A stretch of 64,000 bases of DNA, taken from the IMG/VR virus record IMGVR_UViG_3300003323_000541, positions 1-64,000 of that record, one strand, 5' to 3'. Below are positions 40,438 through 64,000 of the stretch, piece after piece. The notes under the pieces are model-generated. The model ran no database searches and had not been told where the DNA came from. It worked only from the letters and a program-made list of their open reading frames with translations. The first letter of the stretch is position 1; each line of letters starts with the position of its first letter. Both the position numbers and the translations under genes were made by a program. Source of the stretch: a virus.

Positions 40438-43400
40438 TGCCGAAGATTACTTCATCATATATTCAAGGACTATCTCAAGATAGAGCTATTAGTAAGAACG
40501 ATAATAAGCACATAACATTTGGACTTAATATCGATCTTTCTTCATTTGATAACCCAGAGGATGTCGGTATAGTTACCAATCATTCTGGGACAAAGTTCTA
40601 TTGGAGATTACCTGATTTACAACCGGTATATAAAATAGAACTATCGGGGACCCTCGGTAATGGTTCTATAGGAATAGATACGGACACTTCGCTAATAACG
40701 GTATCTTCCACAACAACAATAAAGGATGTATACGATCAACTTATAATAGATTTTGGTGGACAAATAGCATCTGGGGATTATGGTATCCATTACAATAATG
40801 AATATATCATCATCACGGGCTTTGGAATGAATCCTACACCTGTAGTCTCTGCACAGTTTACAGTAACTACTATTGTATCAGCACAAAGGGATCTATCTAT
40901 TATAGGTTGGACACAACTAGAAGAGGAGATAATTCTTCTCTCTACATCAAGGATTAATACCTCAGAGAACCCTTCTAATACTGCTGGACAAATATGGAGA
41001 GTTGAAATAGATGAGGAAACAGAAGAACCAATTGGTTTATCTGCAGGATCTCTTGTAGCAGCAACTCACCTTGTATATAATCAAATATTGAACTTTTCAT
41101 TGGCTCATGAAATAGAAAGAGAGACCATAGCTAAAAAGGAAAGTTCCATTAAAGGAAATGTTTATTGGACTGATGGATATAATCCACCAAGGGTAATAAA
41201 TATCTACAATCCTCAAAGCTTTGCAATTGATCCTTCTCTTTTAGATTGGACTCCTAGTGTGGACCATTCTATTCCTATTATTCAGGATATTATCGAAGGA
41301 GGAACCAATAGGGTGGGCAGATATCAATTTGCATACAGATATATCTCTAATGATGGTGCAGTAAGTACTTTTTCTCCTGTTAGCAATTTAGTTAATTTAA
41401 CAGATTCTACAGCAACAGAACCATATCAGGATTTTGATGGAGCAGAAGCCGGAACAGAATCAGGTAAGTCCATTAGGTTTAAGATAACCAACCTAGATAG
41501 ATTATTTGACTTCCTGGAGGTTGCTGTTGTTATATATGAAGTTAAGGATGTACCATTAGTATATAAGTTTGCAGAAATACCAATTGATGGTGACGAAATA
41601 AATATTGTCTATACTGGTAATGAACCAAAGAGTCCTATAACTTTATCAGAGTTCGTTAATCCAAATACTTCGTTTAAAACGATTAAAACCTTTACACAGA
41701 AGAAGGAGAGACTATACCCAGCTAATACCACAACTGAAAGCTTTGAGGTTGATATAGACACCAGAGCATATAGATTTAAATCTTTGCAGACTACCACCCA
41801 ATTGTTTAAAAGAGATGGTACTAGTGATACATTAAACGGTACTACATTTGAAATTGGTGGTAATCCTGTACCTGATGAACATGATGCGGTGAATGCCTAC
41901 AATGATGAATCAGGAACCGTATTTGGGTCCATAGGTGCTGTTAACTGGACAGTTAATCATCAATATAAATATCAATATAATTCCACTAGATTAGGTGGAA
42001 CTGGTCCTGTTATATCTTATTCTTTCTTTAGAAAAGAACTAACCGGAGATGAGGTTAATGATACAGATAGGAGCAATGTACCTTTTGTATACCTTAATCC
42101 TATTACAGTAACCAACGATAACTTAGGTATTACAGGACAAGATTATCCAACTTTCGGTCCGTATGATAATTTCAAGAGTCCACAGATGTCTTCTGTGTTT
42201 AAAGGACACGCACGAGGGGAAGTCTATCCATATGGTATAGTATTTACCAATAGTAAAGGACAAGAATCGTTTGTATACTGGATTGCTGATATAAGAATAC
42301 CTGAACCATGGGAAGATAAAGACGCCGATCTATCGGTGGTTGATGGTTCCAATGCTGATATGTTATTCTTAAATTCTATAGGTATAACCTTTACTGTAGA
42401 CACAGCAGCAGTTCTAGCGGCTGATCCTACAATTACAGGTTGGTATTTCGTTCGAATGGAAAGAAAGGAGAACGATAAAACCAGACATGGAATGGGAGTA
42501 ATCACTGGTATTGAAGCATTTCTTGACCCCAATGCAGATGGTTCTAGGATAGATTTAGCATCTGGTGGAAACGTAGATGTGTTCATGTTAGGAACAAGAT
42601 ATGGACCTGACGCAGCTATTCCTGATATGCTAGACCTCAACAATAATTTCGACACTAATCCATTGATAGACCTCAATGATTCGAAATTAGCTAGCTACTA
42701 CTCTCCTGAGATTGACTTCAACAGATATTCAATAGGTACTGCAGCATTTGCTAAATTACTTCATGTATATAATTTCAAAACAACAAGATATTGGGCTGGA
42801 GAATTACCCGCTGGTAATAAAATAGTAGCAGACTATCGTAAGTTACAGGACATTGATAATTCCCCTGCAAATAACTATTATAATATAAATAAGAGTACTC
42901 CACTAACTATAGAGACTATAGTTCCTAGCAACTTTAGTACTTCGTTAGGATCAAGGGACTATCATCATATATTTAACTATAAACCTGATGCTGGTGGTAC
43001 AGGGGCCGATCATGAACTATCGGGATTTGGAACTAAAGGACTGTTCATAGAATTTGCTACAGACATTCCTACAATAACCCCACCAAATGATCAATTTTAT
43101 TTAGCATCACTTGGCTCATTTAATATCGGACAATATGGTGGACCATGGAGAACCAACCGATATAACAGGATATATATATCAGCACAGTCTTACCAGCCAA
43201 TAAAGGTAGCTAACTCTCCACAAACTACTACTGTATTTGGAGGAGATGTAAATATGGTATACTATTCAAGGGTACTATCATTCATGCATTGGAAACAAGA
43301 TTACGGTTATCCTACAGCTACATCTAGTGGTCTTGGACAAGCTTATGAACCAGTTGCTGCAGCAATGTCTGCTGTAGCTATAGTGTTCCCATGTGAAAGT

Positions 43401-47099: not shown

Positions 47100-47309
47100 A
47101 TGAGAATTAATTTATTTAACAGAAGATTTTATTTAGGTAAAAATATAGGCGATTATACTAAACCTGGAAAGCATATCATGTTTAGAACTTGGTCAGATAC
47201 TTCTCCAGTGTTTACAGTATATCAAGATAACTACACAGATTTATTGAAATATTTTTGGAAAGTTCTGAAATATAAAATAAATACAAAATACTATAGTATA
47301 TGTCTGTAA
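47100..47309 (+). CDS. small basic protein, 69 aa
   Basis: Starts MRINLFNRRFYLGKNIGDY at ATG 47100 (a GTG at 47091 is an alternative). Aromatic and basic (LLKYFWKVLKYKINTKYY), with no recognised domain. It overlaps the following gene by 10 bases. Function unknown. Confidence 0.6.
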   Translation: MRINLFNRRFYLGKNIGDYTKPGKHIMFRTWSDTSPVFTVYQDNYTDLLKYFWKVLKYKINTKYYSICL

Positions 47310-49858
47310 GACTTATTTCTCCAACCTCTACACCCTATCAATCTCAGTTTGTTCCACTTCCTGTGGAATTAATGGGAACTCAGCTAGCTCAACATCAACA
47401 ATCATTTGATCAAGCCAGAGCTACTGCTGATGCTACTAATTTCAACTTAGAGGCTGCTCCCTGGAATACTGAGTTTGTAAATGAACTATCTTCTAAGTAT
47501 AATAGTAAGCTATCTGAAATTAGAGATAATCTAATGCAGACTGGTAGTACCAATTATGCGATCACCAAGCTTGGACAGCTAAACAGGGAGTTTCAAAGTG
47601 ATCCTAATGTTAAGTCTACTAAAATGAATTACGACTACTATAAGGAAAATGTTCGTGATTTGATGAAACAACCTTATTGGAGAAGTACATATAGTTCAGC
47701 GTTGAATCCTAATCTTACATGGAAGCAGGTATCTCCTTCAGAGGACATGCCTACGTTCTTATTTGGTCATGAGGTAGATAATGAAATCAGAAAGAACTTA
47801 GAGAACCTTAAACCCAGTATCATATCACAAATGCAAGATGCTGGTTATGATGTAGCTCTTGATCAATTTGGTAGAATAGTGGACTCTGAAGGAAAGATTC
47901 TTCGCGAAGAAGAAGTTCTTGATATGTCCAATCCTTATACACAATCTGCTCTTTCAGGGCTCGTAGAACAATATCAGAACTACGATCAGAGCCCTACAGG
48001 ACAATATCTGCGTTCACATTGGAATATTGGTTCAGAGAATATACCAGAATATATTATGAACCTAGCTAAGCCATATTTCTTCAGAAATAGTAAGACTGCT
48101 CAAACAACTGATAGACATTATGACTGGATTCCTGAGCATCATGGTAAGGGAAGTGGTAGCACCAATCCTCCGGATTACCTGCTTAATATTTCTGAGGTAC
48201 CAGAGACAACTGTTACTATTCCTGCATTTGATAACACGTTAAATGCTGTAGTAGAACAGGACTCTCTTATTAAGCATTATGATAATGAGGTGCTTAACAC
48301 AGGAGCTCAATTGTTCTCCATGTTAGATCCTCAGACCAGAATTGATATGCTTAAGCAAGCTAATATAGAAGCCAATAGCGACAATCTGGTTAATTTACAG
48401 AATTACTATCCACAACTAAATAAGGATCAACGAGAGAAGCTCTCAGGAGCTCTTGAGCAACATTTCTTTGGAGATGATAAGAATCCAGGTCTATATAATC
48501 AATTAGCATCTAGAACTGATCTTTCTCCAAATGAACAGAACCTATTGTATGCTCTTGAAGATTACGGACAGAAGGTAATTGAAAGAGAAGGACTAAAGTC
48601 CGTACAAGAAAGTGATCTTGCTACATGGCAAGGAATGAGTAAGGAAATAGATGACGAATTCCTTAACTCTAAATACAACGGAAATAAATCTGTGAGATCT
48701 GCAATTAGCGACTTCACTGTTAAAACAGACGAAGGTGCTCAGAAATATGATTCATTCCAAAGGCTCAATAAAGCTCTTGGTAGTGAGTTCACAGAAGAAG
48801 ATATAGTAGATTATATAAAGGGTCTGGATAAGGTAGATGGTATTAAGAAAACATTAGACATGTTCTCTGGTGGAGACTATGCATCTAGACAAGTTCCTTT
48901 ATATGTTTCCGATAGGTGGGATAAATATTTAAATAAACACGCTACAGAATTCCAAGGAATAAAAGCTCAATTAGATAATCTAAGAAAAGATTACCGGTCT
49001 AAGTTAGAGAACAAACTCTCAACAGGATATCAATATCAGGAACCTGGTACTTTCCTGGAATATGAAATGAATGAGAATTCTAAGAACATTCCTGGAAGAC
49101 AAATGGCTCTTCTATCCCAAAGCTTAGAACCGCTGTCCATTAGTGGTAATATAAATAAACTTGCACAAATGGTTGGTATCCCTGGAGGAGTTGTAGCAGA
49201 GACTAATAAAAAACAAGGAAATCTTTGGGAGAAGATTCGTGGACAAGCTATTCAAAAGACAGGTAAGGACATGGATTATTCGGAATTCAAGGATGCTAAA
49301 ATAACTAGCGCTAAAATTGAAACCTCCGGTGATGCTACTCCGTCCATGTATGTCACATATGCCTATGATAAAGACAATGATCAGAAGTCTATAACCCTTA
49401 AGCTAGACGCTGAGGACTTAGATAAGAACCTTATTAAGCAACTAGGTTGGGAATCATTGACATATAATCAAGATCCTAATGTACAAGAGAAAGGGGCATT
49501 CCTTTATGCTCTGGGATCATTAGATAATAATAATTGGAAGAAACTTCGTCAGCTCCAATCTAGGACACTTTCTAAGAGTGGGGCGGGTGAATATAACAAT
49601 GTATCAACAAACATCGCTGTAGATGGCTTAAATTTCGTTGTAACGAAGTCTCAGGGACCTGACGGAAATAACGTATACAGACTACATAATGCTAATACAC
49701 CTAATCAATCATTTACATTTAAAAACATGAATGAGGTAGTTTCTACCCTTGGTGTAGCATTAGGTAACAACACAGCATATAACCAACTACAGAGCAATGG
49801 AGGTGGCTCCATGGGGGAGCCCCTAGGTCAGGGAACCGTTTGGACTCCCGACAAGTAA
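47300..49858 (+). CDS. virion interior (cargo-like) protein, 852 aa
   Basis: Starts MSVRLISPTSTPYQSQFVPLP. Almost entirely helical after residue 30, with many Asn/Gln and repeated coiled-coil stretches. A beta domain is near the C-terminus (about 690-830). The size and place, before the polymerase ORF, match interior proteins of crAss-like virions that are stored in the head or tail and ejected. The stop lies inside the next reading frame. Confidence 0.6.
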   Translation: MSVRLISPTSTPYQSQFVPLPVELMGTQLAQHQQSFDQARATADATNFNLEAAPWNTEFVNELSSKYNSKLSEIRDNLMQTGSTNYAITKLGQLNREFQSDPNVKSTKMNYDYYKENVRDLMKQPYWRSTYSSALNPNLTWKQVSPSEDMPTFLFGHEVDNEIRKNLENLKPSIISQMQDAGYDVALDQFGRIVDSEGKILREEEVLDMSNPYTQSALSGLVEQYQNYDQSPTGQYLRSHWNIGSENIPEYIMNLAKPYFFRNSKTAQTTDRHYDWIPEHHGKGSGSTNPPDYLLNISEVPETTVTIPAFDNTLNAVVEQDSLIKHYDNEVLNTGAQLFSMLDPQTRIDMLKQANIEANSDNLVNLQNYYPQLNKDQREKLSGALEQHFFGDDKNPGLYNQLASRTDLSPNEQNLLYALEDYGQKVIEREGLKSVQESDLATWQGMSKEIDDEFLNSKYNGNKSVRSAISDFTVKTDEGAQKYDSFQRLNKALGSEFTEEDIVDYIKGLDKVDGIKKTLDMFSGGDYASRQVPLYVSDRWDKYLNKHATEFQGIKAQLDNLRKDYRSKLENKLSTGYQYQEPGTFLEYEMNENSKNIPGRQMALLSQSLEPLSISGNINKLAQMVGIPGGVVAETNKKQGNLWEKIRGQAIQKTGKDMDYSEFKDAKITSAKIETSGDATPSMYVTYAYDKDNDQKSITLKLDAEDLDKNLIKQLGWESLTYNQDPNVQEKGAFLYALGSLDNNNWKKLRQLQSRTLSKSGAGEYNNVSTNIAVDGLNFVVTKSQGPDGNNVYRLHNANTPNQSFTFKNMNEVVSTLGVALGNNTAYNQLQSNGGGSMGEPLGQGTVWTPDK

Positions 49859-50191: not shown

Positions 50192-53100
50192 ATGTTTGAA
50201 TTAGACGAACTAGGTAATCCTATTATTGATCCACTGACTGGTAAACCTAAAGTATCAATGAGCTCCATGCAGGGTATAACCCCAGGAGCCTCTAATCAGA
50301 GTTCAATTGTTGATAAAGGTAAAAGCTTGTTTTTGGGCAATATAGGCGAGGAGTTGGGAGTCGAAAGTTATGATCAGCAGTTTGCTGATAGACTATACCA
50401 ACCCTCATTAACTTTCTCTGAGCAACGCACAGGAGATGAAGTTAAAGAAAGAGCAGAGTATGATCAAAAAAAGAAAAACGATCTATACTTTGACACGGAT
50501 CTAAATGAGCAAAAAGCTTTTAACCAGACAGGAATGGACCAATTGGCTAATGGTTTAGCCAAAGCTTTCGGAATTGCTGGTACTACATTTGCAGAATCAC
50601 TAGGAGGACTACCTATTGGTCTATACAACGTAGCTGTTAGTGGAGGACAAGGATCTGCTTTTTACGATAATGATTTTACTCAGACTCTTGATTCATTCAA
50701 TGAATGGATGAAAGAGCAATTCCCTAACTATTATTCATCTGCAGAACAAAAGCTTGGATTAGGTGAGTCGTTACTTACCACCAACTTCTGGGGTGATAAA
50801 TTCGGTAATGGTTTAGGATATATGGCCGGTTCTGTACTGGCTGCTATGGCTACAAGAGGTTTATCTCTTGGGTCCAATTTAACTAAGAGTACTCAAATAC
50901 TACGAGCTCTTGGTAAAGACTACGCTAAAATTCAAAGAGCTTTACAGGTGGGTAACCTTGTTCAGAAGGAAGCCCAAATAGTTAACCTTGGTAATAAGAT
51001 TGATAAACTTATTGCTACAGGTGTTTCTGCTATTGGTGAATCTTCTGTAGAAGCTCGTAGCACAAGAAATGATATCATTCAAGATCTTACTACTAAACGC
51101 GATAGCGGGGATCCCAGATATTCATGGATGACCGATAATGATATAATTAGAGAAGCTGATACAGCCGGTAATTTATCATTTGGTCTTAATATGGCTTTGG
51201 TAGGATCATCTAACTTTGTTCAGTTTGGTAAACTGTTCTCTAATAAATATGATGTTGCTCGTAGATTGATAGCAGATAATGTTGTCAAAGAAGGTTCTGA
51301 ATACTTAGTCCGTCCTTCTACAATGAAAAATGTTTTCAATATAGCTAAATCTCCGTTTGTTGAAGCATTTCAAGAAGGAGCTCAGTATTGGACTGAACAA
51401 ACACTATCAGATTATTTTGAGAATGGAACAAGAGGAACCGATTACGCTAAACAGTTTTTACAATCTTCTGTTAAGGGATTAGAAGAAACATTAGGGTCCA
51501 GAGAAGGACAAGAGTCCATGCTTTTGGGTGGGATCTTAGGTGGGCTATTTGGAGGTATAGGAGCAGTTAAAGAAAATTCCGATAAGAAGAAAAAGGAATT
51601 TGCTACAGCTAATTACCTAAATCAATTTGGTGACCTTGAGTCCATTAAACCATTAGTTCAATCTTTAGCTAATCATAATGGATATCAGACCACACTAGAG
51701 AACTCTCTATTAACTGATGATCAGTTCAATTATGAGAATGCTAAGTTTGGACAGACGTTTAATTATATCCAATCAAGAATAGACGCAGGTAGATTTGATC
51801 TATTGGAAGATGAGCTTAACGCTTATTCACAATTACCTAAGGATGAATTCGAATCTACATTTTCAACTGAACTTAAAGCAGGAGAAACACCTGCTAACAG
51901 GGTAGCTTCAATAAAGAAATTAGCATACAGATTAGATGAAATATCTGATATGATGGATACAAGATTCCCTGATGTCCCTTCATATCTGAGAAACGGCATG
52001 AAGTATGCCTTAGCGACCACAGAGAATATTGATAATCGTATATCTGATATATCCAATCAGATTGCTAATTACACTGGATATATTCCCTCTGGTGCTGATG
52101 TTGCTCTATACAATAGTATACAAAAAGATGTTAAAGAAAAGATTTCTTCTTTAGTCAGGGACTGGAGAGATGAAGTAGATTTTGATAAAAGAATCGACAT
52201 AGAGAACCAGATAAAGAAACTAGCTCGAACAAACGTAGAGATCACCAAAAAGAAATTACCTCAGCTTACTAAAGGAGCCGTAGGTACGAGCTTCGATGAT
52301 GCGGTAGAGTTAGGTACTTTCCTTAATTTCTTCAATCGTCTCGATCAATTTATCCAAGAGAATCCTCACATATCTGATGATCTGGTTAAGAAGGTAAATG
52401 ATATTACCAAGCTTCAACAAAGAAGGGAACAGTTTATTAAAGACTACAAAGATCTTGTAACTGAACAAGGTCAGCGTAAGATGAAGAAAAAGATAGAAGA
52501 AGCTATCGCTCGTATCACTGACCCTACTGTAAAACCAAGACTTTCCAATCTTTCTTCGGAGGATTATCTTGATTATGAAAATAATAGATTAGGATACATT
52601 AAAGACAATCGTCTTGAGCTCTATAAGAATACTTTGAACAATAGTTCTAAATTTGCAGAAGATATTTCATTAGCATCAACTAAGGACCAAAAAGAACAGA
52701 TTGGTAATGAAATGATGAAGCAAGGGGTTTATATTGACCCTGATCTTAAGAAACAATTAACTGATGTTCATAAAAGCGAAGAAGATCGTTTAAATGAACT
52801 TGGCGATCGTTTACAGCAAATAGCTCAACAAGGTACTCCCGGCTTTGACGAAGAAGGAGAAGAAACCAGTATATATACTCCCGAGCAGGAATTAGAGGTA
52901 GATTCTATCACTAAAGAGATGGAGGCTCTTGAAGCTCAACAACAACGTAACAGAGATTTCATTAATCGTATGGAATCTTATTCTGTGGCTCAGCAAGAGG
53001 TTGAATTAACTGATGGAGAGCTTAGAATTAAGATTGCTAAAGAATTTATAGATAAGTCCAATGGTATCTTACAGAACTTTGAATTAGATGAGGACTATCA

Positions 53101-56100
53101 GGATATTAATTCAGTTAAGGATCAAATAGGCGAATTAAAGGCCCTTAGAGCTATTTTCTCCAAGAGGACAGATGAATCCCTTACTAAAGAAGAGAAAGTC
53201 TCTGTAATAGCTTCTATTGACTCTGTATTGGAAAAATTAGATAATATCAAAGATGAGATTGAAAAAAGGATTGAGAATCGCGAGAGAACTAATACTGAGC
53301 TTTGGGAGCAAACAAGTGTGGGAACCTTTTCTCAACTTGGTTATGATCTGGATAATAATATGGTTAATAATGAACCATTGTATAATATTATCAGAACTCC
53401 GATTGATGCTGTTGATCTTGGATTGGTTGATAATATATTAAGCAGAAGTAAACAAGATAAGAATGTAGTTCTTGCTGATTACATCAAGCAAAAATTATCG
53501 GAGTATACCAAAGGAGATAAGAAAGCATTTATTGCTCAGATTGATTCTATATACAATGAGATATACGATGATGTAATTGAAAGTAAAAGAATTCAGTCCA
53601 GAGACTTTTCCAATAAGGATAAAATCATATCACAATATAAGTTAAATCCAAAAAGAGGATTCAATGAACTATTAAAGATAATCAGAGATCAGATGGATCT
53701 TGAGGTGGACAGTCCATTCTCTGTGTTCATCAAAGATCAGAATCTTCCTAAATTCAGAAGAGCAATCCAGAAACAAGATAGGACCGATTCAGTTGTTTCT
53801 TCTGAAGAGATCATAAATATAATCGATAATCATCAGAGGTTATCTGATCTGTATGATCTTAAAACAGATATAAACAGTGACTACTCTATTATACAGGAGA
53901 TACTAGATGAACAGTCTATAGCATCTAAACTAAAGGAGGGAGATCTTGTACCATCTAAACAACAGTTAATAGCAATAAGAGAAACAGTGAAGTGGTATTT
54001 CACTTCAAAAGAAAATGAAGCATTTAAGAATTGGGCATATCTTAAAGGAACAGCAGGTACGGGTAAAAGCTCTGTCATCTCCACATGGGTTAAAAAGCTT
54101 ATCAATCTTAATAATGCTGAAATATATGGAGTGGGACATAATGATATTTCGTCGGAGAATATCAACCGTCTTCTTGGAACTTCTGCTAAAACTTCTATTG
54201 CGGACCTCTTAGGTAAACTTCGTGATAACAGTCTGTCTGATAAAACAAAACTGATTATATTAGATGAGGTCGCTGCTCTTTCTACAAGAGAATTAATTGA
54301 AATTGACAATGCCCTTATTGCTCATAATAAATGGAGATTGGATAACAAAAAGAATCAAGTTAAGATTCTTTCCTTAGGAGATCCTAATCAAATAACCAAA
54401 TATCCGACTCCTCCTATAGAGAATTCATCTGAGTCATTTGGTGAACAAGGTACACTGTACTCCACTGAAGATTTTATTAATATAACCAATATATCTCCAT
54501 TAACTATTGTCTATAGGACAGATGTAGCTCCTATCACGGAATTCGCAAATAAATTCCTGCAGAAGAAGCTTGACGTTAGAAGTGAACCTGTGTATGTTAC
54601 ATCTAATGTAAGTAATATAGATACAGCTGTGGCTTCTACGGGTGTTTATGGAGCCAAGGAATTTAAAAAAGATCTATTAAGGTATCTTAACAATCAAACA
54701 TTAACCGATGGTAAGAAACGGGTGGTGATTGTTAATCCTGAAGATATCGATAGTTACAAAAATTTTATAGCTAATGCAGGAATAGATTTATCTAAAATCG
54801 AAGTAATAGATCCTGTAGATGCACAAGGTCGGACCATTGATGAAGTATTCCTTTCCTTAGAATCTAAAGGGAGCGTAAGATCTACTGTATTCTATAATCC
54901 TCAAATGTATGTATCCTCATCCAGAGCTAAAACATTCTTGATGATTGGAGAGCTTAATACAATAAATGTATTTGATGCTGATGTTGCTGCTAAAAAAGAG
55001 GATAGATCAAAAGAGAATACCCAGAGATTAAATAACTTCAAAGAGGACAGAGATAAAGAAAAAGAATTACTCTCTGATCAGATAGGTAATCAAACGGCGA
55101 AAAAGACCTTTGCTCAGAAAACTGAGGAAACGAACCCTAAGAAGGATGATCAGGTAAAAGATCCTACAGAAATAGAGAAAGAAGAAGATTTTGAGGTAAC
55201 ACAGGAAGAAATAGAATTAGCTATATCTTCTCACGAAACTAATGACGATATTCAATCTATTGAGCAATCAGATGTAATGCAAGAGCCTCTTGCTAATGTA
55301 AAAGTATCTGAAGGAAAAAAAGCTCATATATTATCTGAACCTACATCATCTTCCATAGCTAAAGAAAATACCCCAGGTGTTAAAGCAGGTGATAATGTCT
55401 TGTTTATAAAGGTTCGTGATACTAATATTGATAACACTAAAGATGTTATAAAGGTTGTCCAAAAAGCTGAAGAAGAGGATGAATACAGGATAGTTGCTGT
55501 ATTAAATAACAATGAGCTTAACGGTCCATTTTCGTTCCTTCGGTCCATGTTATCAACAGATAGTAAAAGAACTATAGTTGAACCTATTAGAACAGAGTCT
55601 GGTAATATAGTTATCAGAAAGTCTAATATCGATCCTGTATATAAATCAAAAGTAGTCTCAGCAAGAACTTTAAGTTACGATTATTCTTCAGAATCAGTTC
55701 CACTATCTCAAGAAGAAAAAGAACGGACCATTGATAAATTCATGGACACCTTCTTCAGAAAAGAGCGTAGACCTCAAGGACTTCGTTATAAGGTTGAGAT
55801 GTATACCAATAATGATATCAAGAAGCTTAGGAATAATAACAAGATTCCTGATGAGTTCATAGTGGACCCTGGTGTTCCATATATCCACATAACAAGTCCT
55901 AAAGCAAAAGGATCTAAATCCTTTGTGACTAAAGATCAATTCATCAGACTATCTCCTGCTAAATATAATATCAATAAGCATTCAGAGTTATTTACCCCTC
56001 TGCAGGATTTTATTTCTCTAGCATCTGATCTTGAAAATATTACAAAGCAATCTATAGGTGATCCTCTATTTAATAAAGCAATCAGAGACGTTGCCAATGG

Positions 56101-59100
56101 ATTTTATGATACCCCTGAGGTGGAGTCTTCAAATATTGATGTTAACAATCAGCAAGTAGTAGATCTCTGTAAGAGGGTATTTGATCTTGTCTACCAATTA
56201 CCACCTGAAGAAAGTCAAGTGGTCCGTAAGGGTGAGACAGTAAAAGTGAAAGATGATTCACCAGAAGCTCCTTTAACAGATAAAAACGGAGTAACAAGAC
56301 CTCGTAAAATATTAAACGTAGAAACCGAAGATGGACAGAAGATAGCTGTATTTGAAGGAGGAAGAAGAATACCTTTCTCTGAACTGGAATGGTCCGGAAA
56401 AAGAACTGCAGGTCCTGCTCAACATGCACTTAATCTTTTAGCTCTGTCAAACCTCACTGCAGGAGACTTTGGTCTTGCTCGTATTACCAGAGTTAAGGTT
56501 GGTGATAAAACCCAATATATCAGAACAGGTAAATCTCTGTTAGGAGACTCTACGGTAGGTATTAGTTCATTTACATTAAGACCTTATTTACAACGATTGG
56601 AGGGAAGAAGACAACGTCTTGATCCTTCCTATAAGCCTATATCATCTACAAGCGTTAATTTAATTAAGTCTCAATATTCCGAAGAAGAGTTTCAGAATTT
56701 GAGTACATTAGTTGGATCATTACCATCTTTATATGATCTTAAAATGCTTCTGGACTTTGATTCACAGACAGGAGACTCTGTAGTTAATCAAGGATTTGGT
56801 TTAAGAGTGCCTATTCCCAAATCTAAGAGAGTAGCAGATCAAAATGTTCCTCTTGATAAATTCGACAACCTTGAGGATTATTTAACTACCAATTTTGAAG
56901 GAGTTATCCCAACACAGGTTGTTATTGAGATTGATAATGATTCTGCTGTAATAGAAGATTCGAATCCTAAAACTTCTGAAGATGAAGAAAGATTAGGCGG
57001 AAGAGATATTGAAGATGATCTGTTTGGTTCATGGGGATCAAGATTATTAACCGAAGAAAGAGCAGAAGGTAAAGACCTTGGTTATGAACTTCAAACCAGA
57101 GAGGTTCTTAACTACATTAAATCATTACTTCCAAATATCAACGAATCTCAACTTAAATTCCTTAGCTCAACAGAAATGTTGAAGATAACCAAAGGGATTA
57201 AGGCATATGGCTTGTGGAGAGATGGAGTAATCTACTTACAAACTAATAAGGACAATAAGGTCAATACACGTGTTATAAGACACGAAGTATTCCATGAAGT
57301 ATATAATAATTACCTTACTAATAAAGAGCGCTCTAAGCTTCTTAAAATAGCTCGTAGGGACTATTCTCTAAATGATCAGACAGATGTTCAGGTGGAGGAA
57401 TTCCTTGCGGACAAATATCAGGAATGGGAAACAAAGAAAAGTAAGCCCACTTCATTTATAACCTCTATATTCAAGAAGATTAAAGATCTGTTCGATTTCA
57501 TCTTTAATAATAACTCTGTCATTGATCAATACTTTGATAAGATTGATTCTGGTTATTTTAACAAATATTCATTAGATCCGTTAAGAGGAGAAAGATACTC
57601 TTCACCGGTAGTGAAGAAATTTGATACTGTAGAAGGATTCAGAGAGGCTAAGAGATTGTTGTTGAAGAAACTTGACGACTATAAGAACCCTACAAAGCAG
57701 TCTGATTCTCATAATCAGTTTCCTGTAGTTGAATCGAAGTCCCAGCTGTTAAATGTCCCAATGACTACATCTGAGGCTATATACTACACTATGAGGGATA
57801 TTAAAGTTGGTCTATATACATTAACTGAAAGATATAAGGAAAGAGAAGGTCCATTAACAGAGAAAGAGAAACACAGACTTGATGCCCTCACACGTTTATC
57901 AGATCCTTCTGTATTTAAAGAAATGCTAAAGGATATTTATCCTACATATCAGAATGCTAATCTTTCTTTCATTGATAGACTTGACACTCATTTTGATCCT
58001 AATAAATACATTAGTCAAGGTATAACAGAAGGTGAAACTACAGAAGACTTTGAGGATGAATGGGAAAATCTGGATGAAGATGTAGCCAATCTTTATGAGC
58101 AGATAGTAGAGGGTGATCGCATTAACTGGGAGAACAGGTTAACTGAATCTGTTAAACATTTCTTATCATCTATTCTTCTAAATGGAGAGCCTATTAATTC
58201 TAAACAAGCGTATGCTGTATTAGGAAGAGTTTTAACCAATATAACAGGTAATAGTGCATCTGAGAAGATCAAGCAAATCAAACAGGCTTTTCTTACTTTC
58301 AAATCACAAAGTAAGACTACTATAGCAATAGAGAATGAGCTTGTCAGACTGATATCATTCTTAGATGAAGAACAACCTGTTCCACAATTGAAGAAGATAG
58401 TTTCTAACTTTGGTACATTCAAATTCTCTGCAGAAAATTCTACCAATCTCGATTTGTTCGAATATCCAACCCAACGGTTAGTTAATGGTAAACTAGAACG
58501 ATATATCGTTAGAGTTAATAAATCAGGAACCGACTCTGCTGGTAATAAGATCAATATTGGAACATCTGCATTCTTTCGTAAAATAAAGAATTTGGTAGAT
58601 CAGCACAATAAAGAGAATAATCTCAAAGATGAATTTGATTTAACAGATCTTAAGGTTCTTTATCTAAGGGCTTATTATGCTAACACTTTAAATGAGATGA
58701 TGGCATCTTTGAACTCTCTTAGAACAAAGAACGTATGGTATGGTCTTAAGACCTATGATTACGGTAAACCTAAATGGAGGTATAGTCCTTTTGAAAAAGA
58801 GATTGATAAAGCTCTTCAATTAAGTGTTATCAAGGATAAATTATCTCAGAAATATCCTGTTCTCCAGAACTATTACAGGTCATATTATAACGTTAAATCT
58901 GCTCAAGATAAGAAGAACCATTTAAATAACCTTTTCAAAAGTCTTGGTCTTGGTAAAGGAGATATAGCGATGACCTACTCACAGGCTGTGACCATTCATG
59001 AAGATATACTTAGAATGGTAGATGAATTTGAGAACAGCAGGAAAGAGGCTAAATTAAATCCTAAGACAATTGAAAATGAGGACGGTGTAACAGTTGAGGT

Positions 59101-62100
59101 ACAACCTATCTTTTCAGATATATTGGAAAACTCCAACACCAGATTAGTTAATATTGCTAATGTCCTTTCTGCGAAGAACGACAGGTTCGAGAATGCTACA
59201 ACATATATAGGAGGGGATGGGAAACCCCGATGGTATTTAACGGCTTCTTCACAAGCTATAGATACGATGGTAAATATCATCAATCAACGAATATTACCAC
59301 CTTATTTACGTAAGAACAGCTTCTATAAGTTCAATCCGATTAATCCGTCTTCTGGTCTTAATATCAATAAGGTATATTCTTATTTTGATCACGACTCTTT
59401 GAAGAATGACTTTAGTGGTTTCACTCAGTTATACAAAAGAGAGAAAGAGAAAGGGTGGTTGGACCGTAATTTCAATTTCCAGTTCCTGGCTGCTTTGTCT
59501 AATATCAGTCAATTTGATGATAAGGTATACGCTCAACAGGTATTCACCATATCGAACAAACCAAATATATTAGGTGCGTTCATGAAGGTACTTGATGATA
59601 ATGCATTACGTAAATCTATTGGAATAGCTTTATTACAAGAGTCCGTAAGATCAGAAAAAGATATTAAGAATTATGATAAGAACCTTAACAAAAGTTATAT
59701 CATAGGTCAAGATAATAAGATAACAATTGAAGATGTTCGCAAAGCTCTGAACAATAATGAACTTACTGCAGAACAGTTACAGCAAATGTTGTCCACCGAT
59801 AAAGGCTTCAATACACTATGGAGCTCATTAAAACTAGATAGAAGAGTTAACACAGTTCTATCTAAGCTTGAGAACGATTCTGTTGATATCGCAAAAATGA
59901 TGGTAGAACAGAAGATGATTTTCGATAGTCGTCTACCAAGTGTATATAATTCTTTATTACAGGACAGAGTATTCAACTTCCCAGGAACATTCAGGAAATA
60001 CAAGATTGAAACTGATACCTTCAATGACAGGAACAAAACAGAAGGGTATGATATTAAATATACCGAGATACTTCCTCTTGTAGATCTTTGGGTAAAAAAT
60101 AACTATATCAATAGCTTATTCCTCAATCAGCTTCTAACAGGAGATGAAGCTTACTTTAAAAATGCCGTAGATGAGATAAAACGTATGAGCGGTGCTCATG
60201 CTATTGGTCAGAAGGGTAATGTCATGGGTAAGTGGGGAATGAGAGAGAAGTTTAATGTTATTGTCGGAAAAGACATAAAGGACATCTTCAAAAGCGAATA
60301 TAAGGACGATCCAAGATTTCGACGACTATTAGAGAAATCTTTTGAATCTACAGATGGACAAGGATTCATGACTCCTGAAAGATATAACGATATTGTTAAA
60401 GGATTCGGACAATCTTTTAAATTAGGTAAAGTTCTTAAGCCTGTTCATTATGAGATAGATAAGGATGGTATTCCAAGATTCCTAAAGTATTCTTCTATTG
60501 TTCTTACAGATGAACTTGTTAAAGCTTTTCCTGATCTAAGAACCCTTAGAGATAAAATGCAAACTAATGGAATGCATGAAAACGATCTTCGGGTATTTAC
60601 CGAGTTTATGAACAGAAAGCTTGGACAAGGTAATCCACTTAAATCCTATGAGCTTGATATACTAAATAGAATAATTGAGGACAATATTAATAGTGGAAAT
60701 CACGTTGATGAATTTGTATTTGAGACTGCTCTTAAAGTTGGTGTACCAAATAAAACTGTACCTGTAGAAGAGGAAAGACACACTGATTTCTCTTCAGCAA
60801 CTAAGTTCACCTTAAGTAACTATAATTATCGTATACAGCTTAATCCTAAGCACCATACAGATTCTCACGTAAAAACTCCCTCTCAGATCATCTATCAGCT
60901 TAATACTAATACCTTGAACCTGGATGCTGCTAATAGAGTTTATGGACTCTTGTCAAGACTAACGGACATGGGTTTAGAGAAGATGTCTGAGGTTCTTGGA
61001 AAGAAAGCAGGTATTGATAAGAACCAATTAAAGAAGGTGAAGGATACTATTGCTAGCAAGGTTAAATATTCTTCCACCGATAAAAGGTTTGCTGAACTTA
61101 TAAACAACAAGGATATTAGTATTAATTTTCCTTATATTGTCCGTAAAGCTATAGCAAGCCTCAATTCAATGGTATCCAATGCTACAGTGGGTACAGAGTT
61201 TTCTGGGACAAAGCTTGTATTAGAATCGGCATATGGAACAAGAACTCAGGATATAATGACTAAGAACGGTATTAGAAAATACCCAGAACTAGTAGTTGAT
61301 CCTAAGAGTGGTGAATATTACATGGAATGTTATTTACCGGATATTGGTAATTTGAGAAAGAAGCTGAATATTTCAGATGAAGTATTCTTTGAAAGTAAAG
61401 ACCTCTCTACTTTATTTGGATTCCGTATCCCTTCTACAGAGCTTCACTCTGCAGTTCCGATTAAAGTTATTGGATTTTATCCTGTTGAAAAAGGATCAGA
61501 AGAGAATATTATCATTGCACCAAAAGAACTGGTTTTGCTTCATGGTTCAGACTTTGATGTGGATTCATTGTTTGCTATCAGAAAAGATCCTCTTACAAGA
61601 GACCTTAATGACTATGATGGTAATGTAATATATAATACTGGTGATGTACTTCAGGGCTTTGAAACAATCAACAAGATTGAAGCCATGATCAAAGACTATT
61701 ATTCAGATCTATCAGCAGGGGATAAGAACTATAATGGTAAAGAAAAGGATAAGCTTACTTCTACTTTAAAGTCTCTGGATAAAGCTCTTGAAACAGCTAT
61801 TAAGAACACCGTCATTAGTGAACTATTGGATATAATCCAATCTAGTAAGAACCTGGAATCAATGATGGCTCCTATCACTATGGACAGATTCAATGGTGAT
61901 GCTATAGCGGGAGAAGAAAGGGTTATCCCTATGATCGAAAGGGTAACAGGTAAGAAGTTCACAGAACAATATGACTTAAAGAGATTACCTGATCAATTGA
62001 AGATGCACCAGGACAACTTCCTTGGTGTATCATTAACTGGACAGTTTGCTAATTATTTCAAAGCTTTAGCATATATTTTCCATTCAGTTGGTGAAAACGC

Positions 62101-64000
62101 TGATGTTCCGTTAAAGGATAAATATCATATCACCGTTGATGGATTTAAATATACATCTTTACATCGGACAGAAAGAACCAAAGATGGCGAATTAGAAGTT
62201 GTAATCAACGATCGTGGTGACAAACAGGTATATACTATATGGGAGACATTAGACTCCCTTATAAACGCTGCAATTGATAATGTGAAGGTTCAAATACTTC
62301 CCAAGATAAATGCTACTAATAATACAGCTAAAGGTCTTGTTTCCTTAATCGCAATGGGGGTACCTGTTCATACGGTAGTTAAGATTCTTTTACAACCCTC
62401 AATAATGGAACTGTCCAAGGGAATTCAATTACCAATGTTAAAAGGTCAAATCAAGAACAAGCTCGCAATGTTAAAGCAAATTAATGTTGAAGAACTTCCT
62501 CTTGAGGATCATCTTAATAATACATCCATAACATCGGAAAATCTGGAAAGAGATATCAACAAAAAGATAGATGATATGAACTTTGAGGAACTTCTGTTCC
62601 AATACTATCTGATTGATACATTCCAGACAGTTAGTGAGATGGGTGATTACATATCTAATACATCAGGATTTCTTAAGATATTAAAACACTTACCAAGCAA
62701 CTATGCGGATGTTCAGGATGTGATGGACAAGATTGATACTATTTATAAGGACACAGAAGCAGAGTCCAGAGAGTTCAAGGACAACTATCCATTCATAGGA
62801 GCAGATATCTTGTCTATTCCTCATATACAATCAGCATTTAAAACCATTAAAAAGCTTAAGACCAGACTAGAACAAATCTTCCTTGTAAACAATAAAGCTC
62901 TTATTGAATTCTCAAAGAAGATCAATCAAATAGTTAAGATTGGTTTAGCAGAACAAAACTATGACACCAACGAGAACCTTGCAAGAATTCGTGAAGAGTT
63001 CTTAAAATATATCCTCACTGGATATAAGGAAATAATCGACGGTAAGGAACTCTCAATGGATACAACTAATGAAAAACCATATAAAGGCTTTAAAGGTGTA
63101 GATGCATGGGTTCAAAGATTCATTGATGAAACTCTAAGACCTGCTGTTGAGAATAATACAAATAACCTGTTCCTGTCCAATATAACCATTGAGAAGAGTG
63201 TTCGTAAGGGTGAACTATCCAAACAGTATATATCCTTCTTAAAAGGTTCACAAATGAACAATGATGAGCTTTATGAAATGGAAATATACTTCGATAAGCT
63301 ATCGGATGACGGTAAGATTAGTGATCTGCAATTAGGATTAATTAAATATGCTGTATTGACCCAAGGATTATCATTTGGAGCAAGAAGCTATACTGCAGTT
63401 ATCCCACCAAGATACTGGACTGGTATAAACCAATATATTGATAATCAATTATTGGACATCTTCGCGGATGAACAAAAAGGAGATTCGAAGTTCGATAACC
63501 TTTTAACACATTTTGCAGCTCAATTACTTTCGAAGAATACAGAAAGTCTTATTGATGAACGAATCAAAAAGAACATTGTTAAAACCGGTAATACAAAGAT
63601 GGTTCGAGGTAAAGAAGCTTTCTTGTATCGTGGAAAAGACTCATATGGTTATTTTGATCTTAAGGTGAAAGGTGGTGGCTTTAAATCGTTCATCTCTCAA
63701 TATGGGTCCATATATTATAATATTGGAGAAGTCGAGCAAGCAGGAGAGATTACTACATACTTCCAGAAAGTTAAGAATGAATATTCATCTGGACACTATC
63801 AGTTCAACAATGAACTATTTAAGAACGGATATGATATACAAAAGGTGTTTGGTAAGGACATACTTGCTGTTCAGCTTGATGAGCCATCAAGGACTATTGA
63901 ACTGACTAGAAGTGAATATACAGATTCCTATAGCTTCAAAGAAGGAATGGAAATCTATACACATTTAGCTTCTGATCCATTAAGACTTGAAATGAAGAAA
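50192..64000 (+). CDS. giant virion polyprotein: SF1 helicase, zincin and virion RNA polymerase (partial)
   Basis: An open frame from ATG 50192 to the window edge, at least 4603 codons. Residues 1-460 hold several hydrophobic Gly/Ala segments (for example 443-460). Residues 470-1250 are coiled coil. A superfamily 1 helicase follows: GTAGTGKS (1286-1293), ILDE (1356-1359), LGDPNQ (1395-1400), YVSSSRAKT (1573-1581). A zincin has HEVFH (2364-2368) and EEFLAD (2402). The two-barrel RNA polymerase has K3416 (KPVHY) and K3432 (LKYSS) in the beta-like barrel and DFDVD (3787-3791) in the beta-prime-like barrel. Such polymerases are packaged and ejected to transcribe early genes. Confidence 0.85.
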   Translation, partial: MFELDELGNPIIDPLTGKPKVSMSSMQGITPGASNQSSIVDKGKSLFLGNIGEELGVESYDQQFADRLYQPSLTFSEQRTGDEVKERAEYDQKKKNDLYFDTDLNEQKAFNQTGMDQLANGLAKAFGIAGTTFAESLGGLPIGLYNVAVSGGQGSAFYDNDFTQTLDSFNEWMKEQFPNYYSSAEQKLGLGESLLTTNFWGDKFGNGLGYMAGSVLAAMATRGLSLGSNLTKSTQILRALGKDYAKIQRALQVGNLVQKEAQIVNLGNKIDKLIATGVSAIGESSVEARSTRNDIIQDLTTKRDSGDPRYSWMTDNDIIREADTAGNLSFGLNMALVGSSNFVQFGKLFSNKYDVARRLIADNVVKEGSEYLVRPSTMKNVFNIAKSPFVEAFQEGAQYWTEQTLSDYFENGTRGTDYAKQFLQSSVKGLEETLGSREGQESMLLGGILGGLFGGIGAVKENSDKKKKEFATANYLNQFGDLESIKPLVQSLANHNGYQTTLENSLLTDDQFNYENAKFGQTFNYIQSRIDAGRFDLLEDELNAYSQLPKDEFESTFSTELKAGETPANRVASIKKLAYRLDEISDMMDTRFPDVPSYLRNGMKYALATTENIDNRISDISNQIANYTGYIPSGADVALYNSIQKDVKEKISSLVRDWRDEVDFDKRIDIENQIKKLARTNVEITKKKLPQLTKGAVGTSFDDAVELGTFLNFFNRLDQFIQENPHISDDLVKKVNDITKLQQRREQFIKDYKDLVTEQGQRKMKKKIEEAIARITDPTVKPRLSNLSSEDYLDYENNRLGYIKDNRLELYKNTLNNSSKFAEDISLASTKDQKEQIGNEMMKQGVYIDPDLKKQLTDVHKSEEDRLNELGDRLQQIAQQGTPGFDEEGEETSIYTPEQELEVDSITKEMEALEAQQQRNRDFINRMESYSVAQQEVELTDGELRIKIAKEFIDKSNGILQNFELDEDYQDINSVKDQIGELKALRAIFSKRTDESLTKEEKVSVIASIDSVLEKLDNIKDEIEKRIENRERTNTELWEQTSVGTFSQLGYDLDNNMVNNEPLYNIIRTPIDAVDLGLVDNILSRSKQDKNVVLADYIKQKLSEYTKGDKKAFIAQIDSIYNEIYDDVIESKRIQSRDFSNKDKIISQYKLNPKRGFNELLKIIRDQMDLEVDSPFSVFIKDQNLPKFRRAIQKQDRTDSVVSSEEIINIIDNHQRLSDLYDLKTDINSDYSIIQEILDEQSIASKLKEGDLVPSKQQLIAIRETVKWYFTSKENEAFKNWAYLKGTAGTGKSSVISTWVKKLINLNNAEIYGVGHNDISSENINRLLGTSAKTSIADLLGKLRDNSLSDKTKLIILDEVAALSTRELIEIDNALIAHNKWRLDNKKNQVKILSLGDPNQITKYPTPPIENSSESFGEQGTLYSTEDFINITNISPLTIVYRTDVAPITEFANKFLQKKLDVRSEPVYVTSNVSNIDTAVASTGVYGAKEFKKDLLRYLNNQTLTDGKKRVVIVNPEDIDSYKNFIANAGIDLSKIEVIDPVDAQGRTIDEVFLSLESKGSVRSTVFYNPQMYVSSSRAKTFLMIGELNTINVFDADVAAKKEDRSKENTQRLNNFKEDRDKEKELLSDQIGNQTAKKTFAQKTEETNPKKDDQVKDPTEIEKEEDFEVTQEEIELAISSHETNDDIQSIEQSDVMQEPLANVKVSEGKKAHILSEPTSSSIAKENTPGVKAGDNVLFIKVRDTNIDNTKDVIKVVQKAEEEDEYRIVAVLNNNELNGPFSFLRSMLSTDSKRTIVEPIRTESGNIVIRKSNIDPVYKSKVVSARTLSYDYSSESVPLSQEEKERTIDKFMDTFFRKERRPQGLRYKVEMYTNNDIKKLRNNNKIPDEFIVDPGVPYIHITSPKAKGSKSFVTKDQFIRLSPAKYNINKHSELFTPLQDFISLASDLENITKQSIGDPLFNKAIRDVANGFYDTPEVESSNIDVNNQQVVDLCKRVFDLVYQLPPEESQVVRKGETVKVKDDSPEAPLTDKNGVTRPRKILNVETEDGQKIAVFEGGRRIPFSELEWSGKRTAGPAQHALNLLALSNLTAGDFGLARITRVKVGDKTQYIRTGKSLLGDSTVGISSFTLRPYLQRLEGRRQRLDPSYKPISSTSVNLIKSQYSEEEFQNLSTLVGSLPSLYDLKMLLDFDSQTGDSVVNQGFGLRVPIPKSKRVADQNVPLDKFDNLEDYLTTNFEGVIPTQVVIEIDNDSAVIEDSNPKTSEDEERLGGRDIEDDLFGSWGSRLLTEERAEGKDLGYELQTREVLNYIKSLLPNINESQLKFLSSTEMLKITKGIKAYGLWRDGVIYLQTNKDNKVNTRVIRHEVFHEVYNNYLTNKERSKLLKIARRDYSLNDQTDVQVEEFLADKYQEWETKKSKPTSFITSIFKKIKDLFDFIFNNNSVIDQYFDKIDSGYFNKYSLDPLRGERYSSPVVKKFDTVEGFREAKRLLLKKLDDYKNPTKQSDSHNQFPVVESKSQLLNVPMTTSEAIYYTMRDIKVGLYTLTERYKEREGPLTEKEKHRLDALTRLSDPSVFKEMLKDIYPTYQNANLSFIDRLDTHFDPNKYISQGITEGETTEDFEDEWENLDEDVANLYEQIVEGDRINWENRLTESVKHFLSSILLNGEPINSKQAYAVLGRVLTNITGNSASEKIKQIKQAFLTFKSQSKTTIAIENELVRLISFLDEEQPVPQLKKIVSNFGTFKFSAENSTNLDLFEYPTQRLVNGKLERYIVRVNKSGTDSAGNKINIGTSAFFRKIKNLVDQHNKENNLKDEFDLTDLKVLYLRAYYANTLNEMMASLNSLRTKNVWYGLKTYDYGKPKWRYSPFEKEIDKALQLSVIKDKLSQKYPVLQNYYRSYYNVKSAQDKKNHLNNLFKSLGLGKGDIAMTYSQAVTIHEDILRMVDEFENSRKEAKLNPKTIENEDGVTVEVQPIFSDILENSNTRLVNIANVLSAKNDRFENATTYIGGDGKPRWYLTASSQAIDTMVNIINQRILPPYLRKNSFYKFNPINPSSGLNINKVYSYFDHDSLKNDFSGFTQLYKREKEKGWLDRNFNFQFLAALSNISQFDDKVYAQQVFTISNKPNILGAFMKVLDDNALRKSIGIALLQESVRSEKDIKNYDKNLNKSYIIGQDNKITIEDVRKALNNNELTAEQLQQMLSTDKGFNTLWSSLKLDRRVNTVLSKLENDSVDIAKMMVEQKMIFDSRLPSVYNSLLQDRVFNFPGTFRKYKIETDTFNDRNKTEGYDIKYTEILPLVDLWVKNNYINSLFLNQLLTGDEAYFKNAVDEIKRMSGAHAIGQKGNVMGKWGMREKFNVIVGKDIKDIFKSEYKDDPRFRRLLEKSFESTDGQGFMTPERYNDIVKGFGQSFKLGKVLKPVHYEIDKDGIPRFLKYSSIVLTDELVKAFPDLRTLRDKMQTNGMHENDLRVFTEFMNRKLGQGNPLKSYELDILNRIIEDNINSGNHVDEFVFETALKVGVPNKTVPVEEERHTDFSSATKFTLSNYNYRIQLNPKHHTDSHVKTPSQIIYQLNTNTLNLDAANRVYGLLSRLTDMGLEKMSEVLGKKAGIDKNQLKKVKDTIASKVKYSSTDKRFAELINNKDISINFPYIVRKAIASLNSMVSNATVGTEFSGTKLVLESAYGTRTQDIMTKNGIRKYPELVVDPKSGEYYMECYLPDIGNLRKKLNISDEVFFESKDLSTLFGFRIPSTELHSAVPIKVIGFYPVEKGSEENIIIAPKELVLLHGSDFDVDSLFAIRKDPLTRDLNDYDGNVIYNTGDVLQGFETINKIEAMIKDYYSDLSAGDKNYNGKEKDKLTSTLKSLDKALETAIKNTVISELLDIIQSSKNLESMMAPITMDRFNGDAIAGEERVIPMIERVTGKKFTEQYDLKRLPDQLKMHQDNFLGVSLTGQFANYFKALAYIFHSVGENADVPLKDKYHITVDGFKYTSLHRTERTKDGELEVVINDRGDKQVYTIWETLDSLINAAIDNVKVQILPKINATNNTAKGLVSLIAMGVPVHTVVKILLQPSIMELSKGIQLPMLKGQIKNKLAMLKQINVEELPLEDHLNNTSITSENLERDINKKIDDMNFEELLFQYYLIDTFQTVSEMGDYISNTSGFLKILKHLPSNYADVQDVMDKIDTIYKDTEAESREFKDNYPFIGADILSIPHIQSAFKTIKKLKTRLEQIFLVNNKALIEFSKKINQIVKIGLAEQNYDTNENLARIREEFLKYILTGYKEIIDGKELSMDTTNEKPYKGFKGVDAWVQRFIDETLRPAVENNTNNLFLSNITIEKSVRKGELSKQYISFLKGSQMNNDELYEMEIYFDKLSDDGKISDLQLGLIKYAVLTQGLSFGARSYTAVIPPRYWTGINQYIDNQLLDIFADEQKGDSKFDNLLTHFAAQLLSKNTESLIDERIKKNIVKTGNTKMVRGKEAFLYRGKDSYGYFDLKVKGGGFKSFISQYGSIYYNIGEVEQAGEITTYFQKVKNEYSSGHYQFNNELFKNGYDIQKVFGKDILAVQLDEPSRTIELTRSEYTDSYSFKEGMEIYTHLASDPLRLEMKK

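What the first reader, a model, noticed from the sequence alone, without database searches (positions are those of the whole stretch)
50192..64000. Giant ORF fuses an SF1 helicase, a zincin protease and a virion RNA polymerase
One uninterrupted frame of at least 4603 codons carries complete helicase motifs I, II, III and VI, a HExxH protease with a downstream EExxxD, and both catalytic signatures of the two-barrel RNA polymerase (paired lysines and DFDVD). Polymerase and giant proteins are known in crAss-like phages. Having a helicase upstream of a protease and the polymerase in one chain suggests a self-cleaving ejected transcription machine that unwinds the entering genome.
Basis: partly seen in the sequence, partly recalled or inferred. 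Interest (0 to 1): 0.75.

Follow-up and report, generated by a model that had tools for sequence, protein, structure and literature searches.

The report
Phage polymerase cargo as one chain
This crAss-like phage makes a 4,684-residue protein that strings a helicase, a protease-like domain and an RNA polymerase together, and comparison with its relatives suggests that these phages always join their injected polymerase proteins end to end, either by fusing the genes or by pairing cysteines at the protein ends.

Summary
The frame starts at 50192 and runs 246 bases past the window to contig base 64246 (4,684 aa). It is the fusion of two neighbouring crassvirus virion-cargo genes: the homologue of phiCrAss001 Gp47 / phi14:2 g067, carrying an SF1B (RecD2-like) helicase and a C-terminal zincin, and the virion RNA polymerase Gp50 / g066. 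The third cargo gene (Gp49 / g065) follows, unfused. K3416, K3432 and DFDVD match phi14:2 K1012, K1027 and D1361, and the modelled polymerase matches PDB 6VR4 (E 1e-28). Gp47+Gp50 fusion is common in crassviruses. The in-chain helicase marks one clade, and many of its members fuse all three genes (5,400-6,680 aa). Self-cleavage is not supported. The new result: these proteins are nearly cysteine-free except at the ends that meet. Gp47 and Gp50 end with Cys, and Gp50 and Gp49 begin with Cys; the outer ends have none. The pair is present where the chain is split (41 of 44 Gp50|Gp49 junctions) and absent where it is fused, over at least 9-10 state changes. It also appears at breaks in unusual places. 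I infer head-to-tail disulfides that make one continuous cargo chain, with gene fusion as the peptide-bond equivalent.

The parts
50192..64000 (+). Giant ORF, 4,684 aa; continues to contig base 64246, past the window
   Evidence: orthologous over its whole length to L128 (4,794 aa)
50408..52069 (+). N-terminal Gp47-type region (aa 73-626); homologue of phiCrAss001 Gp47, cr85_1 and phi14:2 g067
   Evidence: tblastn to crassvirus 'putative RNA-polymerase subunit' E 1e-24 to 6e-32; alignment A1
53939..55066 (+). SF1B (RecD2/Dna2/Upf1-like) helicase, aa 1250-1625
   Evidence: Pfam AAA_30; conserved motifs in 21 lineages; AF2 model pLDDT 77; Foldseek RecD2 3gpl E 1.9e-10
54047..54070 (+). Helicase motif I (Walker A) GTAGTGKS, aa 1286-1293
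   Evidence: G, G and K invariant in 21 sequences
54263..54268 (+). Helicase motif II Asp-Glu, aa 1358-1359
   Evidence: invariant
54377..54391 (+). Helicase motif III GDPNQ, aa 1396-1400
   Evidence: D and Q invariant
54920..54925 (+). Helicase motif VI Ser-Arg (arginine finger), aa 1577-1578
   Evidence: R invariant
57074..57586 (+). Zincin-like domain at the Gp47/Gp50 junction, aa 2295-2465
   Evidence: homology to the C-end of Dulem virus 41 Gp47 (E 1e-11) and phiCrAss001 Gp47
57281..57295 (+). HEVFH, aa 2364-2368
57395..57412 (+). EEFLAD, third-ligand region, aa 2402-2407
   Evidence: EE largely conserved
57629..64000 (+). Two-barrel virion RNA polymerase module (Gp50 / g066 homologue), aa ~2480-4684
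   Evidence: blastp to phi14:2 g066 and cr85 gp50; AF2 model pLDDT 81; Foldseek 6vr4_A E 1e-28
60437..60439 (+). K3416 (= phi14:2 K1012)
60485..60487 (+). K3432 (= phi14:2 K1027)
61550..61564 (+). DFDVD, catalytic aspartates, aa 3787-3791 (= phi14:2 D1361 on)
40437..44915 (+). Crassvirus muzzle protein (Gp44 homologue)
   Evidence: Pfam crAss_MUZ E 1.4e-119
44917..47058 (+). Cysteine-free protein in the place of cargo protein Gp45
   Evidence: gene order as in phiCrAss001; 0 Cys
47300..49858 (+). Cysteine-free protein in the place of cargo protein Gp46
   Evidence: gene order as in phiCrAss001; 0 Cys

Best explanation
The ORF is the fusion of two crassvirus virion-cargo proteins: Gp47 (here carrying an SF1B helicase and ending in a zincin) and the virion RNA polymerase Gp50. 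By homology it is packaged in the capsid and ejected through the tail to transcribe early genes. The helicase probably opens or translocates incoming DNA for the polymerase (inferred). Crassviruses keep the cargo as one end-to-end linked chain Gp47-Gp50-Gp49. Where the genes are fused the link is a peptide bond, as here between Gp47 and Gp50. Where they are split, the facing ends carry one cysteine each, which I infer form a disulfide; here this applies between the giant protein (C4682 of 4,684) and the next protein (C3). A continuous chain would let the cargo be threaded through the narrow tail as one string. Reduction in the cytoplasm would release the parts. Shown: fusion, domains, helicase clade, cysteine pattern and its loss on fusion. 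Inferred: disulfide formation, threading, helicase role.
For: Fusion: aa 53-2465 match Gp47/g067, aa 2480-4684 match Gp50/g066, and P0003 matches Gp49/g065. phi14:2 and Dulem virus 41 have the same genes side by side and separate. Polymerase. Helicase. AAA_30 matches in 23 of 25 close-relative records (21 over the cutoff), the best match in each lying in a large cargo frame, fused or not. Cysteine pattern (first-M starts, HMM module calls): Cys in the last 8 residues of split Gp47 12/14 and Gp50 57/60; in the first 8 of split Gp50 16/24 (most misses are broken or mis-started ORFs) and Gp49 44/47; Gp49 C-end 0/71; Gp47 N-end 0/72 (six nominal hits are Gp50 starts). Interior rate 0.05%. Both ends carry Cys in 41 of 44 Gp50|Gp49 and 6 of 8 Gp47|Gp50 splits. 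Fused junction regions: 5 Cys in 60 and 1 in 18. State changes at least 9 and 10 on the RNAP tree; independent pairs 7/7 and 5.8/7 agree. About half of the fully fused proteins of 5,354-6,645 aa have no Cys at all. Annotated phages of three crassvirus families and Fpv1 follow the rule. The pair appears at breaks elsewhere: before the zincin (L058, L063, L065) and inside Gp47 (L194). It persists in phiCrAss001 and DAC15, where Gp47 is on the other strand, so it is a protein-level feature.
Against: No virion, gel or mass-spectrometry data exist for this phage, and the disulfide has not been observed. Cargo was not resolved in the phiCrAss001 cryo-EM. The comparison of ORF ends between fused and split states partly compares different protein ends; the cleaner test is the small number of Cys in fused junction regions. 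A few exceptions remain (L110, L084; crAss002 Gp50 has its first Cys at residue 35, possibly a mis-annotated start). Fusion means subunit release is not needed for function. The helicase could act on host DNA or RNA instead.
Confidence: 0.74

Rival explanations
1. Self-cleaving polyprotein: the zincin at the Gp47/Gp50 junction (and a second one at the start of Gp49) cuts the chain into working proteins, so gene boundaries do not matter.
For: Zincins sit at both module boundaries. Processing by zincins is proposed for polyvalent proteins and phage P1 DdrB is processed (PMC5512222).
Against: The zincin is kept in unfused Gp47. phiCrAss001 cargo bands near full size on a reducing gel (PMC6235969). 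N4 vRNAP with zincin is packaged uncut (PMC5512222). About 20 mostly fused ORFs of other clades have HExxE. Split relatives replace the peptide bond by a Cys pair, as if the link matters.
Confidence: 0.15
2. The terminal cysteines do something other than link the chains: they anchor each cargo protein to another virion protein, bind metal, or are sites of another modification.
For: Other disulfides stabilise the phiCrAss001 tail (PMC10172136), so partners exist. No direct proof of Cys-Cys pairing between cargo proteins.
Against: Outer ends never carry Cys. Cys appears on both faces of a split and is missing in fused chains, including fully fused chains with no Cys at all. It follows the break to new positions.
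Confidence: 0.2
3. The helicase is a passenger: a host-directed effector (for example against RecBCD-like defence) that rides in the chain, not part of transcription.
For: Other crassviruses lack it, and Gp47 of phiCrAss001 has a PD-(D/E)XK-type exonuclease match instead. Polyvalent proteins collect unrelated enzymes (PMC5512222).
Against: Kept with intact motifs throughout a diverse clade. A helicase also occurs elsewhere in the same block in other lineages (L043, L094, L111, L112).
Confidence: 0.35

Closest known systems
phiCrAss001 Gp47, Gp50 and Gp49 (Kehishuvirus primarius, Steigviridae)
   Same: Orthologous modules, zincin at the end of Gp47, virion cargo (PMC6235969, PMC10172136); terminal Cys at all four facing ends
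   Different: Three separate genes, Gp47 on the other strand, no helicase
phi14:2 g066 virion RNA polymerase (PDB 6VR4)
   Same: Best structural match, same catalytic Lys and Asp
   Different: Not fused; g067 lacks HExxH and helicase; Cys at both ends of g066
Suoliviridae giant ORFs (cr4_1, cr53_1, cr6_1, cr10_1; 4,400-4,645 aa) and Fpv1 (4,401 aa)
   Same: Gp47+Gp50 fusion already present in public records
   Different: No helicase noted; three of them (cr4_1, cr53_1, cr6_1) have many in-frame stops under the standard code
Intestiviridae RNAP fusion (CrAssphage LMMB, Rudgehvirus jaberico)
   Same: Fusion within the same block; LMMB's Gp47 product annotated as a zincin fusion
   Different: Fuses Gp50+Gp49 instead
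N4 vRNAP and P23-45 tape-measure-fused vRNAP
   Same: Ejected giant RNAP; N4 has a zincin domain (PMC12633501, PMC5512222, PMC10770324)
   Different: N4 catalytic domain is T7-like; P23-45 is fused to the tape measure; no crassvirus cargo modules
Polyvalent proteins (Iyer et al. 2017, PMC5512222)
   Same: Multi-enzyme injected chains with zincins
   Different: Helicases there are mostly SF2; no terminal-cysteine coupling described in the passages read

Membership tests
Crassvirales | Crassvirus major capsid protein | tested here: met
   Pfam Crass_capsid E 5.7e-98; tblastn 32% to Steigviridae
Crassvirales | Crassvirus muzzle protein and cargo gene order | tested here: met
   crAss_MUZ E 1.4e-119; order as in phi14:2 and Dulem virus 41
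Crassvirus two-barrel virion RNAP (6VR4 type) | DFDxD and paired Lys in both barrels | tested here: met
Crassvirus two-barrel virion RNAP (6VR4 type) | Overall fold | tested here: met
   Foldseek 6vr4_A E 1e-28, TMq 0.68
Crassvirus two-barrel virion RNAP (6VR4 type) | Lys and Asp side chains in one active site (distances) | not testable with these tools
Crassvirus two-barrel virion RNAP (6VR4 type) | Present in virions, transcribes early genes | not testable with these tools
   Known for relatives only
SF1B helicase | Signature motifs conserved (Q, I, II, III, IV, V, VI) | tested here: met
   Residues of Q, I, II, III, IV and VI invariant or nearly so, motif V region partly conserved
SF1B helicase | RecD2-like fold | tested here: met
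   Foldseek top RecD2 E 1.9e-10, probability 1.00, but TM about 0.4
SF1B helicase | 5'-3' unwinding | not testable with these tools
   needs enzyme assay
Zincin metallopeptidase | HExxH plus downstream Glu | tested here: met
   no Pfam peptidase family reached E 1
Zincin metallopeptidase | Proteolysis, self-cleavage | not testable with these tools
   indirect evidence against self-cleavage only
Cysteine-coupled cargo chain (proposed here) | Cys on both facing ends when split, none when fused, none on outer ends | tested here: met
   window: C4682 of the giant ORF and C3 of the next protein
Cysteine-coupled cargo chain (proposed here) | Disulfide present in virions | not testable with these tools
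   needs non-reducing gel or mass spectrometry

The most novel reading that the evidence does not exclude
Crassviruses eject their transcription machinery as one continuous covalent string. In phages with split genes the string is built from separate proteins joined head to tail by disulfides between single cysteines at their very ends (Gp47-C:C-Gp50-C:C-Gp49). Gene fusion, as in this window, replaces the disulfide by a peptide bond and the cysteines disappear. The string would be taken apart by reduction in the host cytoplasm.
Probability: 0.7. Interest if true: 0.92.

Novelty: new variant of a known kind. Interest (0 to 1): 0.82.

Why it matters
How proteins of 150-700 kDa pass a tail channel with constrictions under 50 Angstrom, and in a controlled order, is an open question for crassviruses and N4-type phages. 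A rule that facing protein ends carry a cysteine pair, lost whenever the genes fuse, says the cargo acts as one string. It makes the question testable with a non-reducing gel of phages already in culture. It also explains why giant fusions keep arising and splitting in this block, and predicts stoichiometry (1:1:1) and order. The in-chain helicase adds a candidate motor or DNA-opening activity to a virion polymerase.

Tried and rejected
Single-sequence searches of viral contigs with the helicase or RNAP core alone found nothing; alignments of crassvirus homologues worked. phmmer against PDB sequences: no hit; fold search was needed. PHROGs: nothing useful for the giant ORF. The idea that the fused state needs an active zincin was dropped because of the HExxE clade. 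The idea that terminal cysteines are a nucleotide-level effect at gene boundaries was dropped because phiCrAss001 and DAC15 keep them with Gp47 on the other strand. Apparent exceptions L064, L099 and L187 look like broken fused ORFs; in L088 an intervening ORF before Gp49 ends in Cys, as if Gp50 were interrupted. The Nature paper on the phi14:2 RNAP and the 2018 Yutin paper are not held, so prior mention of the helicase or cysteines there cannot be excluded; open-access searches found none.

Full report
WHAT IS THERE. The window is bases 1-64000 of a 99,901-base IMG/VR virus record. The capsid protein (Pfam Crass_capsid, E 5.7e-98) and the muzzle protein (crAss_MUZ, E 1.4e-119) place it in Crassvirales, far from named species (capsid at most 32% identical in the phage collection; one IMG/VR contig at 70%). 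The ORF at 50192 is real and ends at contig base 64246: 4,684 aa. A second ORF of 1,407 aa (P0003) follows 2 bases later.

WHAT IT IS. Residues 53 to about 2465 align with phiCrAss001 Gp47 and phi14:2 g067, residues from about 2480 with Gp50 / g066, and P0003 with Gp49 / g065. phi14:2 and Dulem virus 41 carry the same three genes side by side and separate. So the giant ORF is Gp47 and Gp50 read as one. Gp47, Gp49 and Gp50 of phiCrAss001 were found in virions (PMC6235969, PMC10172136).

DOMAINS. The polymerase core was modelled with 26 relatives (pLDDT 81); its best match in the PDB is the phi14:2 virion polymerase 6VR4, E 1e-28. K3416, K3432 and D3787 line up with K1012, K1027 and D1361 of phi14:2 and are kept in all crassvirus polymerases aligned. 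The helicase has residues of the Q motif and motifs I, II, III, IV and VI invariant or nearly so in 21 lineages at 20-33% identity. Its model (pLDDT 77) matches RecD2, Dna2, Upf1 and nsp13, all SF1B helicases. The zincin has HEVFH and EEFLAD and sits exactly where Gp47 ends in phiCrAss001.

HOW WIDESPREAD. Gp47+Gp50 fusion is frequent: 63 fused against 24 split in the tree set, with at least 9 changes of state. It is already present in public Suoliviridae records and in Flavobacterium phage Fpv1. The helicase inside Gp47 marks one clade: PF13604 matched in 23 of 25 close-relative records, 21 over the cutoff, whether or not Gp47 is fused, and the window falls in a 42-row clade with support 99. 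Many members fuse all three proteins, up to an open frame of 6,681 aa. A contig in a MAG filed as Spirochaetaceae holds a 5,978-aa triple fusion (L148); the host is unknown.

SELF-CLEAVAGE. Not supported. The zincin is there without fusion. Bands of about 150, 270 and >300 kDa on a reducing gel of phiCrAss001 (PMC6235969) fit uncut Gp49, Gp47 and Gp50, although that paper notes moderate mass discrepancies. N4 vRNAP is packaged unprocessed despite its zincin (PMC5512222). A clade of about 20 mostly fused ORFs has HExxE, which may or may not still bind zinc.

THE CYSTEINE PATTERN. The cargo proteins are almost free of cysteine (0.05%). The few they have sit at the ends. phiCrAss001 Gp47: 2339 of 2341. 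Gp50: 5 and 2404 of 2412. Gp49: 5 of 1349. phi14:2 g067: 1797 of 1797. g066: 3 and 2179 of 2180. g065: 3. Across all loci, Cys lies in the last 8 residues of 12/14 split Gp47 and 57/60 split Gp50, and in the first 8 of 44/47 Gp49 and 16/24 Gp50 (most Gp50 misses are broken or mis-started ORFs). Gp49 C-ends: 0/71. Gp47 N-ends: 0/72; the six nominal hits begin with the Gp50 leader. Unrelated ORFs have about 11% at either end. Both faces carry Cys in 41 of 44 split Gp50|Gp49 junctions and 6 of 8 split Gp47|Gp50 junctions; the two misses look like broken fused ORFs. In fused ORFs the junction regions hold 5 Cys in 60 and 1 in 18, and about half of the fully fused proteins, up to 6,366 aa, have none at all. 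Annotated phages of three crassvirus families and Fpv1 obey the rule.

WHY I READ IT AS A LINK. The pair follows the break wherever the break is. In L058, L063 and L065 the split lies before the zincin instead of after it, and the pair is at the new ends. In L194 the Gp47 part is cut in two, and the extra break has its own pair (...KKQSEC | MNCF...). In phiCrAss001 and DAC15 Gp47 is coded on the opposite strand and still ends in Cys, so this is not a gene-boundary effect. Fusion state and Cys agree in 7 of 7 and 5.8 of 7 independent pairs (caution: that test partly compares different protein ends, so the fused junction regions are the cleaner evidence). A disulfide is the simplest link. It would form outside the reducing cytoplasm, as the tail disulfides seen in phiCrAss001 show is possible (PMC10172136), and be undone inside the next host. 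This is inference.

HOW IT LIKELY WORKS. Shown for relatives: cargo in the virion. Proposed by others: partial unfolding to pass constrictions under 50 Angstrom (PMC10172136). Inferred here: the three proteins travel as one string. The window phage makes the Gp47-Gp50 link by gene fusion and the link to Gp49 by C4682 and C3; fully fused relatives do without any end cysteine. The helicase then helps the polymerase reach its template.

WINDOW CASE. The giant ORF has Cys at 1993, 3713 and 4682 of 4,684. P0003 has one Cys in 1,407 aa, at residue 3. The DNA across the boundary reads ...AAATGTAACCTGTAATATGACTTGTCCA....

LIMITS. Start codons are first-ATG calls, modules are assigned by HMMs built here, and the tree is a quick one. 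Key subscription papers could not be read. No experiment has tested the disulfide.

Noticed in passing
window 16101-20279: Terminase large subunit ORF carries intein splicing and LAGLIDADG homing endonuclease matches, probably two inserts.
   Followed up: partly
L002 9055-18232 and L003 9539-12613 (contig about 78-95 kb): Minus-strand cluster resembling class II glutamine amidotransferases, an ATP-grasp protein, amidoligase-like proteins and several gamma-glutamyl-hydrolase-like ORFs, judged by eye only; unusual set for a phage.
   Followed up: no
L003 15569-16537: ISXO2-like transposase (by eye) near the contig end.
   Followed up: no
L009, L010, L012, L016-L018, L020, L024, L026, L028-L030, L032, L035-L037, L040, L042, L118: Zincin domain with HExxE instead of HExxH in mostly fused Gp47+Gp50 ORFs; downstream Glu kept in most.
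   Followed up: partly
L043, L094, L111, L112: SF1 helicase at other places of the same cargo block: after the polymerase (L043) or at the N-end of the polymerase ORF.
   Followed up: partly
L064, L068, L187, and G011, G014: Cargo ORFs interrupted by in-frame stops (TGA in G011, G014); perhaps stop-codon readthrough in members of this clade.
   Followed up: no
L148 (DAOWEB010000162.1): 99-kb contig in a MAG filed as Spirochaetaceae encodes a 5,978-aa cysteine-free triple fusion; host assignment doubtful.
   Followed up: partly
window 6968-7042: tRNA-like gene with an undetermined two-base anticodon.
   Followed up: no
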